Shown: positions 7,372-18,350 of the stretch, piece by piece
Position numbering within the stretch: position 1 is the stretch's first letter
How the letters are laid out: every line of letters begins with the position of its first letter
IMG/VR virus record: IMGVR_UViG_3300025030_000319
Location: 1-31,921 of that record
From: a virus
Length of the DNA: 31,921 nucleotides
Direction: 5' to 3' (one strand)
Notes under the pieces: model-generated
Databases searched by the model: none
What the model was told of the DNA's origin: nothing
Seen by the model: the letters and a program-made list of their open reading frames with translations, nothing else
Made by a program: the position numbers and the translations under genes

Positions 7372-7758
7372 TTATCCTTTCACAGACCCGATCCTGTATT
7401 TATGACTGATAATATACTCACCTTTCTTGTTATGAGGAAGAACAAACACGTTAGGATACTTATCTTTCTGAATAACATTTTCTTGATCTAGAATAGTAAT
7501 CAATCCCCAAGTCTGAAGTAACTTAGTAATAGCGGTTTGTCTAAGATTATCTTCTTCGCTGAGAGTAGATTCTTTGCCGTCAAGACTGAACATATTCTTA
7601 AAGTGCATGATAAAATAACTATCACGTTTCTGGAGAATATAACATGAAGGATAAAGAGTTTTATTCTTATGATTACAAACTCCAATTCGCTCAAGTGTTT
7701 CTCTGACTACATTAAAATTATCACCCTTTAGTTCAACTCTGATACCTTTGATTTCCAT
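7372..7758 (-). CDS. regA: RegA translational repressor
   Basis: The 128-residue protein aligns with T4 RegA (122 residues) through most of its length. Shared features include the LERIGVCNHKNKTLYPSCYILQK region, YFIMHFKNMFSLDGK, SEEDNLRQTAI, LLQTWGLITI and a C-terminal HKYRIGS. RegA binds near start codons of early mRNAs, including those of the clamp and clamp loader in T4, and lowers their translation. GGAGATTAATTG precedes the ATG. The gene begins 38 nt after tnpB, so the putative TnpB guide would be taken from this start region. Confidence 0.92.
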   Translation of the reverse strand: MEIKGIRVELKGDNFNVVRETLERIGVCNHKNKTLYPSCYILQKRDSYFIMHFKNMFSLDGKESTLSEEDNLRQTAITKLLQTWGLITILDQENVIQKDKYPNVFVLPHNKKGEYIISHKYRIGSVKG

Positions 7759-7781
7759 TCAATTAATCTCCATTTCATTTT

Positions 7782-7854
7782 ATCTAATTACCGATCTTAA
7801 TGTAAATTAAGTATCGTGGTCATTTCATTTGGAATTGCTAATAACGAATTAGAT
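7782..7854 (-). ncRNA. Putative omega RNA 3' part / right end of the TnpB element
   Basis: The tnpB stop region folds as ACC(a)CGAT(a)CTTAAT, loop TTAC, ATTAAGATCGGT (7820-7790). Outside it, AUCUAAUU (7854-7847) pairs with AAUUAGAU (7789-7782). TnpB guide RNAs overlap the 3' end of tnpB and end at the element's right end, where the guide begins. Here the guide would be read leftward from about 7781 into the regA binding site and start codon. Confidence 0.45.
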
Positions 7855-8963
7855 GAACCTGATTCACAGCTAGTCTTATATCCCATCGATGACCGTTGAG
7901 ACGCATTAATTCCTACGTCTTTAATATTGAATGCCGCATTCAGATCCCTATCGACTGAATAACCACATTCGCAAGCAAAATTTCTATCCGATAGTTTTAA
8001 TTCATCTTTAATAGAACCGCAACTATTACAAGTCTTTGAACTAGGAAAGAATCGACCTATTTTGACGACTTCCTTGCCGTACCATTTTGACTTATAATTT
8101 AATTGATTGACGAATTGGTTCCACGCTTGCTTTTGAATTGCTCCAGCTAGTTTGTGGTTCTTCATCATTCCAGAAACGTTGAGATCTTCAATGACTATTT
8201 GATCATAATTATTTATCAAGTAATTAGAGACTTGGTGTTGAAAATGCTCACGTTTCCTAGCTATCTTTAAATGTAGTTTATCTATTTTGTTCTTAACTTT
8301 TTTGAAACGACTTGAATCTTTTTCTTTCCTAGCCATATGTCTTTGTAAGTGTTTAATCTTTCTTTGGGTTTCAGAAAAATCTAACATTTTGACTTGGACA
8401 CCATCGCTAGTGGTGACGAATTGTTTAATACCAAAATCTATACCAACTGATTTATTTGTCTTAGGTTTATGATCAATATCCTCCTCTACACAAATAGATA
8501 CATAATATTCATTGATGTTATTCTTTGAAACAGTACAGGACAATAATTTCACATCATCTGGAATTACTCGATCATATTTAATTTTAACTTTTCCTATACG
8601 TTCTAATTGAATTTTATTTTCAAGTAAATGGAACTGTATTTTTGCCAATCGATAACTAAGTCTACATTTCTTTTTTGTTTTAAACTGTGGTCTACCTATT
8701 TTCTTCTTCCTAGATTTATTGAAATATTGTTTAGTTGTAGATAAGAAATCTCTTTGTTTCTGTTGTAATGCTCCAAAAGATACACCTTTAAGAAATTCAA
8801 AGGAATTTCTGAGTTCTTTAATTGATCGGTGTTTTATGTTAGAGTTAAATTCGTTAACGAATTGATTCCACACAAATCTAACACAGCCTATTGTTTTACC
8901 AATAGAAGCACTTTGAGTCTTGTTAGGATAAATCCTAAATTTATAAGCCTTGTGTCTAGTCAT
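7797..8963 (-). CDS. tnpB: TnpB RNA-guided nuclease (IS200/IS605-type OrfB), stand-alone
   Basis: The 388-residue protein is a complete TnpB, the RNA-guided DNA nuclease ancestral to Cas12. The N-terminal helix-turn-helix region (AYKFRIYPNKTQ) is followed by split RuvC motifs with D176 (VGIDFGIK), E259 (IVIEDLNV) and D340 (DRDLNAA). A zinc ribbon has C312, C315, C331 and C333. No TnpA is present nearby, so the element is non-autonomous for transposition or behaves like a homing element. No binding site precedes the ATG. GATAAATA lies 8-15 nt upstream. It separates regA from the gp62 cluster. Confidence 0.93.
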   Translation of the reverse strand: MTRHKAYKFRIYPNKTQSASIGKTIGCVRFVWNQFVNEFNSNIKHRSIKELRNSFEFLKGVSFGALQQKQRDFLSTTKQYFNKSRKKKIGRPQFKTKKKCRLSYRLAKIQFHLLENKIQLERIGKVKIKYDRVIPDDVKLLSCTVSKNNINEYYVSICVEEDIDHKPKTNKSVGIDFGIKQFVTTSDGVQVKMLDFSETQRKIKHLQRHMARKEKDSSRFKKVKNKIDKLHLKIARKREHFQHQVSNYLINNYDQIVIEDLNVSGMMKNHKLAGAIQKQAWNQFVNQLNYKSKWYGKEVVKIGRFFPSSKTCNSCGSIKDELKLSDRNFACECGYSVDRDLNAAFNIKDVGINASQRSSMGYKTSCESGSSNSLLAIPNEMTTILNLH

Positions 8964-8970
8964 CTATAAT

Positions 8971-8978
8971 TATTTATC
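8971..8978 (-). promoter_or_regulatory. Late-promoter-like GATAAATA before tnpB
   Basis: On the - strand GATAAATA (8978-8971) is followed after about 7 nt by the tnpB ATG at 8963. A start 6-7 nt past the element would make a nearly leaderless tnpB mRNA, consistent with the missing binding site. Confidence 0.35.
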
Positions 8979-8990
8979 AGATTAAAGTTC

Positions 8991-9380
8991 TCAGACTTTA
9001 TTGAATGTGTAAACTGTGACTAGTTTTTGTTCTTCCTTACAGTCAAGAAAATAAGCTTCACTCATCCAATCAAAAGCTTCTGGTTCTCCGTGTTTGCCTC
9101 CACCATAATAACAAGTCCAACCAACCCAAGAACCATCAAACATTTTTGAGGCAACAGATTTAGTTTCATAATGACGAGAATATTCACAAGGGATATTTGT
9201 TTCTTCTTCCCCCTCTCTAAACTCATAAGCGTAATCTTGCGCTATACCTCCAGACTTTAGAGAATCATAATAATCATCAACTGAATTCTCATTAAGAGGT
9301 TCATCTTCGATTAAACTGAACTCGCCATTATCAATAGCTAGGTAAATGATGGTAACTTTAATTTTTTGTTTAGGGGTCAT
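8991..9380 (-). CDS. Conserved phage protein, unknown function
   Basis: The 129-residue acidic protein contains FDGSWVGWTCYYGGGKHGEP, a motif I recognise from hypothetical proteins of many large phages. No catalytic signature is evident. Its ATG overlaps the previous stop (TAATG). The tnpB element begins within 28 nt of its stop codon, and the stop lies in a small AAAGT/ACTTT hairpin. Confidence 0.75.
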   Translation of the reverse strand: MTPKQKIKVTIIYLAIDNGEFSLIEDEPLNENSVDDYYDSLKSGGIAQDYAYEFREGEEETNIPCEYSRHYETKSVASKMFDGSWVGWTCYYGGGKHGEPEAFDWMSEAYFLDCKEEQKLVTVYTFNKV

Positions 9381-10166: not shown

Positions 10167-10543
10167 TTCCTCACTCCACCATAAGATTTTTTAATCTTCT
10201 CAATTATTTCAGAATCAATTAATTCTAAGATATCCCTAGCCTTATCATCATCAACCGTAAAATATTCCTTAACCACATTTAAGGTTTCAATATCCATCAC
10301 TGATTGTTTAGGATATTTAAAGTAACGAGATTTCTTATGTAAGGCTCCATGATAAAAGAGATAATGAAACTCATCTGGAATCTTACTGAATTGATTCATC
10401 TCGTTAGCAAACAAGACTGTATCGGGAGCTAAGGATAAGATATAATTAATCATGTACTGGCTATAAACCTTTTTGAATTCCTCAGTACCAGATATATCTT
10501 GTTTACTATTACTTATGTTGTTCGCTATCTGAAAAATATTCAA
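10163..10543 (-). CDS. 62: Clamp loader small subunit, gp62-like
   Basis: The 126-residue protein resembles the short gp62 of marine T4-like phages. Shared features are YSQYMINYILSLAPDTVLFANEMN, the KKSRYFKYPKQ basic stretch, VVKEYFTVDDDKARDIL, and a C-terminal EIIEKIKKSYGG. With gp44 it loads the gp45 clamp onto DNA. The gene has no ATG at its 5' end: the start appears to be TTG at 10543, overlapping the TGA of the upstream endonuclease gene, with AAGGG 11 nt before it. T4 gp62 is longer (187 residues). Gene order 45-44-62-regA supports the call. Confidence 0.82.
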   Translation of the reverse strand: MNIFQIANNISNSKQDISGTEEFKKVYSQYMINYILSLAPDTVLFANEMNQFSKIPDEFHYLFYHGALHKKSRYFKYPKQSVMDIETLNVVKEYFTVDDDKARDILELIDSEIIEKIKKSYGGVRK

Positions 10544-11577
10544 GGTAAATACAACCCTTCTAATAATTTATATTGTTCTTCGTGCGGTAAATACCAAGGA
10601 ATTTCTATTAATCTAATTCCATTAGCTAAACAATAATCTCTTAATTCCTGATCTCGTTTTTGTTGTTTCTCAAAGGCTTTTTGATCTCCCCAAAACTTTA
10701 CAGGTTTGTAATGTTGCACACCATTGTATTCTATAAATACACCATTGACAACAAAATCAATATAATATTTTCTATCATTATGTTTGATTATTTTCTTCTT
10801 AACATTATCTTCCCCATATTTTTCTTTGAGCCAATTTCTAATTCTAGTTTCATTCTTTAAAAGACAGTCAGGACAACCATGCCCCTTTAAAATTACACAG
10901 GGTATGGTTTCCCATATATTCCCATCAACCAAACACTTAAATTTAATTTTAGTTTTAGCATTAACAACGTCACCTATTCTCAAAATTTGTTTGTCTGAAA
11001 GATATTCATCTACCCTTTCATTTGTTATCTTATCTAACTTAGCACATCTTGGGCAGCCATGACCACAGAATACACTGTTAGGTGTAGTTACCCACTCAAA
11101 CCCATCAATTAAACATTTAAATTTGGTCTTATAAAAACTAGTTTTGTACTCTCCTATTCGTTGAATGTTAGTTCCTAATAATCTTTCGTCGCACACACTA
11201 TTATTTATTTTCTCTTTCCCCGAACAACGTTGACACCCATTTTTATTTATTGTTAAATTTTTAGGAGTACACAACCATTCATAACCATCAACCAAACACT
11301 TGAACCTTATAGGCGTAGACCCATTTATATATTCTCCTATTCGTTGAATGTTAGTTCCTAATAATCTTTCATCTAGAATTTCATTAGTTAATTTTAGTCT
11401 ATTACTACAAATAGGACAGTTATTCCCCATTAAAACGATATTAGGTTTTGCTTCCCAAATATGATCATGTTCGCACTTAAACCTAATCTTTATTCTACTA
11501 TCAGTATAATCATCTATTCTCAGAATGTTTCTTTTAAGTAATCTTTCATCTATGATTGTGTTAGTTAACCTTTTCAT
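10540..11577 (-). CDS. Homing-type endonuclease: four zinc modules plus PD-(D/E)XK-like domain
   Basis: The 345-residue protein has four tandem units of about 60 residues (1-60, 61-120, 121-180, 181-240). Each has an FKC...W core and a closing CPxC or CxxC pair (C35/54/57, C94/115/118, C155/175/178, C215/235/238), probably DNA-reading zinc modules. Residues 250-335 form a nuclease domain with D274 (YYIDF), E283 (FIEYNG), Q288 and H289. Such architecture is typical of free-standing phage homing endonucleases. It lies between gp44 and gp62 and ends in an overlap with gp62. Start and binding site are hidden in a long hairpin. Confidence 0.85.
   Translation of the reverse strand: MKRLTNTIIDERLLKRNILRIDDYTDSRIKIRFKCEHDHIWEAKPNIVLMGNNCPICSNRLKLTNEILDERLLGTNIQRIGEYINGSTPIRFKCLVDGYEWLCTPKNLTINKNGCQRCSGKEKINNSVCDERLLGTNIQRIGEYKTSFYKTKFKCLIDGFEWVTTPNSVFCGHGCPRCAKLDKITNERVDEYLSDKQILRIGDVVNAKTKIKFKCLVDGNIWETIPCVILKGHGCPDCLLKNETRIRNWLKEKYGEDNVKKKIIKHNDRKYYIDFVVNGVFIEYNGVQHYKPVKFWGDQKAFEKQQKRDQELRDYCLANGIRLIEIPWYLPHEEQYKLLEGLYLP
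11151..11370. repeat. 37-bp exact direct repeat within the endonuclease gene
   Basis: The 37-bp sequence at 11151-11187 recurs exactly at 11334-11370, a period of 183 bp or 61 codons. It encodes the ERLLGTNIQRIGEY part of modules 2 and 3. Identity at third codon positions points to recent module duplication or gene conversion. Confidence 0.85.
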
Positions 11578-17954: not shown

Positions 17955-18350
17955 TCATTTATTTGAATTACGTTTCATTAATTCTCCACGACTAATCAAA
18001 CTTAAATCATCAATCGTGGGAATATAATCTTTACTCTGTCTCGCAACTAAAACTACATAACCTTCAGGAATATCACCTCTTAGTTTCTCCCAAAGATAAC
18101 GAGCATAACTAATTCTTCTCCTACGTTTATATTTCTTTCCTCTTGCTTCACCTGAAATCTTTTCCTCAATACAGGTAATCCAACCGTCTCTTTCGTGCCA
18201 AGTCGGTTCACCAGATTCCTTAGCATTCCAAGGTCTATTGTCTTCCTTGTATTCAGTCTCAGGACTAATCCTAAGTCCTTTAGGAATTTTATAACTCTCA
18301 AGGGATTTCTCACCCTTCAACCATTGACCAGTCTTAGAGTCTCTTCCCAT
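17955..18350 (-). CDS. HNH-fold-like protein lacking catalytic histidines
   Basis: The 131-residue basic protein ends like phage HNH-type proteins: ARYLWEKLRGDIPEGYVVLVARQSKDYIP followed by DLSLISRGELMKRN. In active members the IPEGY...V is followed by HKD/HHD; here VARQ takes that place, so nuclease activity is doubtful and a DNA-binding role is more likely. The middle has a basic RGKKYKRRRR patch. The AGGAG site is part of an inverted repeat (18361-18387). Confidence 0.6.
   Translation of the reverse strand: MGRDSKTGQWLKGEKSLESYKIPKGLRISPETEYKEDNRPWNAKESGEPTWHERDGWITCIEEKISGEARGKKYKRRRRISYARYLWEKLRGDIPEGYVVLVARQSKDYIPTIDDLSLISRGELMKRNSNK

What the first reader, a model, noticed from the sequence alone, without database searches (positions are those of the whole stretch)
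7740..8990. TnpB inserted at regA: guide would match the regA start, suggesting RNA-guided homing
Seen: an intact TnpB (D176, E259, D340, zinc ribbon), no TnpA, and a right-end hairpin (7790-7820) with an outer 8-bp stem (7782-7789 with 7847-7854). Known: TnpB guide RNA runs off the right end into flanking DNA, and TnpB cuts the matching unoccupied site next to its TAM. Inference: the guide covers the regA ribosome binding site and start codon. Phages lacking the element at regA could be cut, so TnpB would act as a homing nuclease in co-infection. TTTAA at 8982-8986 is one possible TAM.
Basis: partly seen in the sequence, partly recalled or inferred. Interest (0 to 1): 0.78.

Follow-up and report, generated by a model that had tools for sequence, protein, structure and literature searches.

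The report
Orphan RNA-guided TnpB beside phage regA
A T4-like phage carries an intact RNA-guided DNA-cutting enzyme (TnpB) without its usual transposase just upstream of its regA gene, and the end of its guide RNA reads into the regA leader, so it could cut sister phages that lack the insertion, although no such sister phage was found to test this.

Summary
Window 7797-8963 (-) encodes a full-length TnpB with RuvC residues D176, E259 and D340 and a CCCC zinc ribbon. Its AlphaFold2 model matches ISDra2 TnpB. No transposase occurs in the 31.9-kb record. The closest relatives (52-54% identity) are also transposase-less phage TnpBs. In this clade the only partner transposases seen are IS607-type serine recombinases.

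The right-end hairpin is real. The best-supported ωRNA structure, however, is a pseudoknot: loop AAUUA of hairpin 7899-7920 pairs with UAAUU at 7786-7790. Across 24 homologs 95% of the pseudoknot's base-pair cells pair, with compensatory changes (0/500 shuffles). It matches the pseudoknot in the ISDra2 cryo-EM structure.

This puts the element end at 7784-7782 and the guide at about 7783-7764. The guide covers the regA Shine-Dalgarno; the start codon (7758) lies beyond a 16-20-nt guide.

RNA-guided homing is plausible but untested for this locus, because no empty-site relative of this phage was found. The sister element L236 supports it: related phages lack it, and one carries a perfect match to its guide. 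TTTAA as TAM is compatible but unproven.

The parts
7797..8963 (-). TnpB RNA-guided endonuclease, 388 aa; RuvC D176/E259/D340; zinc ribbon C312/C315/C331/C333; disordered C-terminal tail encoded by the omegaRNA region
7899..7920 (-). omegaRNA pseudoknot hairpin AGACGUA(GGAAUUAA)UGCGUCU; loop AAUUA (7907-7911) pairs with the right end
   Evidence: stem pairs covary in 24 homologs
   Evidence: sequence; an analogous hairpin just before the pseudoknot strand is visible in homologs printed (by eye)
7784..7790 (-). right-end pseudoknot strand UAAUU (7790-7786) plus A-G; inferred scaffold end (7784 by ISDra2 geometry, 7782 if the shared AT dinucleotide is the junction)
7764..7783 (-). inferred guide AUAAAAUGAAAUGGAGAUUA = unoccupied target upstream of regA
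   Evidence: inference from the mapped scaffold end
7768..7771 (-). regA Shine-Dalgarno GGAG, inside the guide
   Evidence: sequence
7372..7758 (-). regA (translational repressor)
8964..8981 (-). inferred short left end between the candidate TAM and the TnpB start codon
   Evidence: inference; p8991 ends naturally at 8991 by comparison with homologs
8981..8986 (-). candidate TAM TTTAA(T), unproven
   Evidence: TTAAT or TTTAAT also lies upstream of TnpB in L236 and L237; such a motif is expected by chance in AT-rich DNA

Best explanation
The feature is an orphan TnpB element (about 8981 to 7782, minus strand) of an IS607-associated phage clade, in the gap between gene p8991 and regA. Its right end encodes the 3' part of an omegaRNA closed by a pseudoknot. 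Transcription of tnpB runs on into regA, so the RNA past the scaffold end copies the regA leader (guide about 7783-7764). TnpB bound to this RNA should cut the uninterrupted p8991-regA junction of a co-infecting phage that has a fitting TAM, 15-22 bp past the TAM in regA's leader. Repair from the occupied genome would then copy the element in. Shown here: intact protein, conserved omegaRNA pseudoknot, scaffold end within 2 nt, no transposase in the record. Inferred: expression, cleavage, TAM and homing.
For: Catalytic and zinc residues are invariant in 16 homologs and the fold matches ISDra2 TnpB, TM 0.75/0.80. The pseudoknot pairs in 95% of cells, with both-sided changes at 3 of 5 pairs and 6 of 6 stem pairs, and no shuffle reaches the score. 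The window's A-U where most relatives have G-C is itself such a compensatory state. The geometry equals the ISDra2 pseudoknot (PMC10097598). The sister TnpB L236 sits at a gene start where related phages L317 and L319 are empty, and its 24-nt guide is identical in L319. MA9V-2 carries a homologous TnpB that MA9V-1 lacks. Phages with 1-5 TnpBs have no TnpA of either kind. TnpB drive into unoccupied copies is demonstrated for plasmids (PMC11870625).
Against: No empty-site relative of this phage is available, so target, TAM and homing are untested at regA. The guide covers non-coding leader, which is less conserved than the coding DNA usual for homing endonucleases. TTTAA does not directly precede the target in the empty relatives of L236. 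In MA9V-1 the sequence matching the MA9V-2 guide is missing. Copies at different sites within one phage (G005) cannot be explained by homing alone.
Confidence: 0.6

Rival explanations
1. An ordinary transposon remnant. The element arrived by IS607-type transposition with TnpA in trans, and TnpB only protects the insertion against loss (retention), with no spread between phages.
For: In the same clade TnpB is paired with IS607 serine recombinases (L241, L261, L262, L266/267, L269; also L273 outside it). Several copies at different sites in one phage need a transposase. AT at both inferred junctions would fit IS607-type exchange at a dinucleotide (PMC6188088).
Against: No TnpA in the phage records carrying 1-5 copies. 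Retention and homing are the same cutting reaction, so this rival differs only in ecology.
Confidence: 0.25
2. A TldR-like domesticated regulator: TnpB or its omegaRNA represses or tunes regA by binding its leader, or omegaRNA processing removes the regA Shine-Dalgarno from read-through mRNA.
For: The guide contains the regA Shine-Dalgarno, and both genes are co-directional with a 38-bp gap.
Against: All three RuvC residues are intact, whereas TldRs have lost nuclease residues (own knowledge). A guide matching the DNA next to the element is what any TnpB has. No outside copy of the target with fewer than 2 mismatches was found in fetched loci.
Confidence: 0.08
3. A decayed, non-functional TnpB passenger.
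For: The short left end and the extra G in TAATTAGAT against the clade's TAAYTAT are deviations.
Against: The open frame, invariant catalytic residues and compensated pseudoknot argue for selection.
Confidence: 0.07

Closest known systems
ISDra2 TnpB-omegaRNA (IS200/IS605)
   Same: Protein fold, RuvC triad, zinc ribbon; omegaRNA overlapping the tnpB 3' end; pseudoknot next to the guide (PMC10097598)
   Different: No TnpA; the clade's partner transposase, where present, is an IS607 serine recombinase; TAM unknown here (ISDra2: TTGAT)
IS607-family TnpB (ISFba1, RAGATH-18 type)
   Same: Clade members carry an IS607 serine recombinase next to tnpB; TM 0.75 to 8iaz
   Different: ISFba1 guide RNA is separate from the coding sequence and uses RAGATH-18 RNA with TAM AGGAG (PMC11061315); here the omegaRNA overlaps tnpB and there is no Rfam match
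TnpB gene drive of IS200/605 elements in plasmids (PMC11870625)
   Same: The proposed reaction: guided cutting of unoccupied copies
   Different: Phage genome, no transposase, not tested experimentally
Freestanding homing endonucleases of T4-like phages
   Same: Intergenic nuclease gene in a replication-gene cluster; presence/absence between related phages for sister elements
   Different: Target would be set by an RNA copied from the flank rather than by protein-DNA recognition

Membership tests
TnpB RNA-guided nuclease | RuvC D/E/D triad and zinc ribbon | tested here: met
TnpB RNA-guided nuclease | omegaRNA overlapping the 3' end of tnpB, pseudoknot before the guide | tested here: met
   by covariation, not by RNA data
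TnpB RNA-guided nuclease | Guided DNA cleavage next to a TAM | not testable with these tools
   needs biochemistry; TTTAA(T) only compatible
IS607 transposon | Serine recombinase TnpA in the element | tested here: not met
   absent in the record; present in clade relatives
IS200/IS605 transposon | Y1 transposase TnpA | tested here: not met
   none of the 41 rows of its side of the tree has one
Homing endonuclease element | Related genomes with an uninterrupted site that the nuclease recognises | tested here: inconclusive
   none for this phage; met for sister L236 against L319 apart from the unknown TAM
Homing endonuclease element | Biased inheritance in mixed infection | not testable with these tools
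   needs phage crosses
TldR (nuclease-dead TnpB regulator) | Loss of RuvC catalytic residues | tested here: not met

The most novel reading that the evidence does not exclude
A clade of transposase-free TnpBs in T4-like and other phages acts as RNA-guided homing endonucleases. They settle at gene starts, and their guides are copied from the flanking start region, so each new insertion automatically re-aims the nuclease at the uninterrupted allele of sister phages. The window's copy targets the regA leader.
Probability: 0.35. Interest if true: 0.72.

Novelty: new member of a known kind. Interest (0 to 1): 0.5.

Why it matters
TnpB drive of the carrying element is shown for plasmids but, in the papers found here, not for lytic phages. 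There co-infection gives frequent contact between occupied and empty alleles, and classical homing endonucleases thrive. The mapped scaffold end, guide and pseudoknot make this locus and the L236/L319 pair directly testable. They also raise the question whether orphan TnpBs fill the homing-endonuclease niche with RNA instead of protein specificity.

Tried and rejected
Looked for empty-site relatives of this phage: DNA similarity, viral-contig scans with TnpB, RegA and p8991, and RegA and p8991 profiles. No contig has regA next to p8991. Rfam shows no guide-RNA family in the region. T4 late promoter TATAAATA is not enriched in the window, so a late-promoter argument was dropped. The outer 8-bp stem as the functional pairing is rejected: not conserved in 19 homologs and it uses the covarying pseudoknot strand. 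MA9V-2/MA9V-1 cannot define the element ends, because the spacer between the two genes has diverged beyond alignment. TAM from family B left ends: the left boundary stays ambiguous by several bases. A last scan for closer kin of the window's TnpB gave none beyond L236/L237. Literature searches found no paper describing TnpB homing in lytic phages, but subscription journals are mostly not covered.

Full report
Observation. The window is the whole of a 31,921-base virus record. It is a divergent T4-like phage: gp45, gp44, gp62, regA, gp32-like and gp59-like genes are found, with gp44 at most about 40% and RegA at most 49% identical to named phages. The order on the minus strand is gp45, gp44, a homing-endonuclease-like gene (10540-11577), gp62, p9618, p8991, TnpB, regA. 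TnpB (7797-8963) is open over 388 aa. Its three RuvC acids and four zinc cysteines are invariant among 16 homologs. The best natural relative with a solved structure is ISDra2 TnpB (E = 5e-55). An AlphaFold2 model (mean pLDDT 81, tail 355-388 disordered) superposes on it (TM 0.75/0.80). The p8991 stop (8991) is natural, since homologs end at the same residues, and regA keeps its own Shine-Dalgarno. The element is therefore confined to the two short gaps of 27 and 38 bp plus tnpB.

Relatives. A profile search of viral contigs gave TnpBs 42-53% identical to the window's. The nearest are L236 and L237, whose tail residues (AIPxEM) also match. A tree places window + L236 + L237 together (99% SH-aLRT) within 41 sequences. 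In that group the only neighbouring transposases are IS607-type serine recombinases (6 of 41; Pfam Resolvase); Y1 transposases occur only on the other side of the tree. So this is most simply an IS607-lineage TnpB that lost TnpA, although the labels rest on neighbours within the fetched loci. Eight phage records, including one with five TnpB matches, have no TnpA of either kind.

The guide RNA. In homologs the right end is conserved up to NNAYTAT and then diverges. Upstream, within tnpB, lies a hairpin whose loop carries the complement: window AGACGTA(GGAATTAA)TGCGTCT with TAATT at 7790-7786; L236 GGAGTTAC with GTAAC; L248 GGAGTTGC with GCAAC; L252 GGAATCAC with TGATT. On 24 homologs, 95% of pseudoknot cells and 96% of stem cells pair. 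Both-sided changes occur at 3 of 5 pseudoknot pairs and at all 6 stem pairs. The covariation score is 0.494 against 0.205 (sd 0.032) for the pseudoknot alone, and 0.896 against 0.232 for all; 0 of 500 shuffles reach either, and slid versions collapse. Caution: I chose the 22-nt segments, and for most rows the search required complementarity, so the percentage paired is inflated. Six rows with imperfect pairs (L262, L275, L020, L239, L243, L244) were added by hand. The variety of compensating pair types is the stronger evidence. In the window alone the exact hairpin-plus-pseudoknot geometry arises in 1.2% of dinucleotide shuffles, and a looser definition in 20%, so the window by itself would not be convincing without the homologs. 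The ISDra2 structure has the same arrangement: -5 to -3 pair with -103 to -105, -2A with -106G, and -1A precedes the guide. It also rejected an earlier predicted pairing of the right end with nearby bases (PMC10097598). By that geometry the scaffold ends at 7784 and the guide starts at 7783. If instead the AT dinucleotide found at both junctions marks the ends, as IS607 elements exchange at a shared dinucleotide (PMC6188088), it starts at 7781. Either way 16-20 nt cover GGAG (7771-7768) but not the ATG at 7758.

Does it home? For this phage the question is open: no contig with the p8991-regA junction was found. Sister element L236 gives the best test. It lies between a 147-aa and a 989-aa gene. 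Relatives L317 and L319 (85% identical at the 989-aa protein) join these genes directly. The L236 guide matches L319 over all 24 nt examined and L317 with one mismatch in 20. The bases before the target are AAGTAT and AGATAT, not TTTAA. L236's left flank can be parsed as AATCAT| or TTTAAT|, so the TAM is not settled. In the Chryseobacterium phages MA9V-2 and MA9V-1 a homologous TnpB is present or absent beside a DNA polymerase gene, but the guide's target sequence is missing in MA9V-1. One of the two pairs thus has the matching target that homing requires.

Mechanism, step by step. Shown by sequence: intact nuclease, conserved scaffold, flank-derived guide, no transposase in the record, presence/absence of sister elements. 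From established work: TnpB processes omegaRNA from its own mRNA (PMC10278001, title and abstract), cuts 15-22 nt past the TAM (PMC10097598, PMC11061315), and drives its element into unoccupied plasmids (PMC11870625). Inferred: that this happens between co-infecting phages at regA. Copies at different sites in one genome mean that some moves to new sites must use a transposase in trans or accidental insertion; homing only explains spread at a fixed site.

Verdict. The finding is a new, well-preserved member of a known kind, in a setting that makes an RNA-guided homing hypothesis testable.

Noticed in passing
window 10540-11577 (-): Freestanding endonuclease-like gene (phrog_559; DUF4379 and CapR domains) between gp62 and gp44, a second selfish-nuclease candidate in the same replication operon.
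   Followed up: partly
window 17955-18350 (-): HNH endonuclease match (phrog_1891).
   Followed up: no
L236:1307-2494: IscB-like gene (RRXRR domain) one gene upstream of the TnpB; absent at that place in L317 and L319. In L237 a TnpB lies in the same gap on the other strand.
   Followed up: partly
L236:4180-4193, and the right ends of L257, L261, L275: The conserved right end ...ACTAT followed by G recreates an ATG start codon of the downstream ORF in four elements, and in L242 and L020 the start lies 0-1 nt after the end.
   Followed up: partly
L243, L244, L246, L283 (one 243-kb phage contig): Five TnpB matches in one phage genome without any TnpA. By eye, the copy in L243 follows a terminase-like ORF and precedes an intein-like ORF.
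   Followed up: partly
L244:1488-1724 (-) and L249:6413-6664 (-): Group I introns within a few kb of the TnpB copies.
   Followed up: no
L021 / L315 (Chryseobacterium phages MA9V-2 / MA9V-1): TnpB directly upstream of a DNA polymerase B gene in one phage and absent in its relative on the same host strain.
   Followed up: partly
window 7777-7806 (-): A sigma-70-like promoter match (10 of 12) whose -10 box lies just past the element's right end, upstream of regA; such matches are as frequent in shuffles.
   Followed up: no
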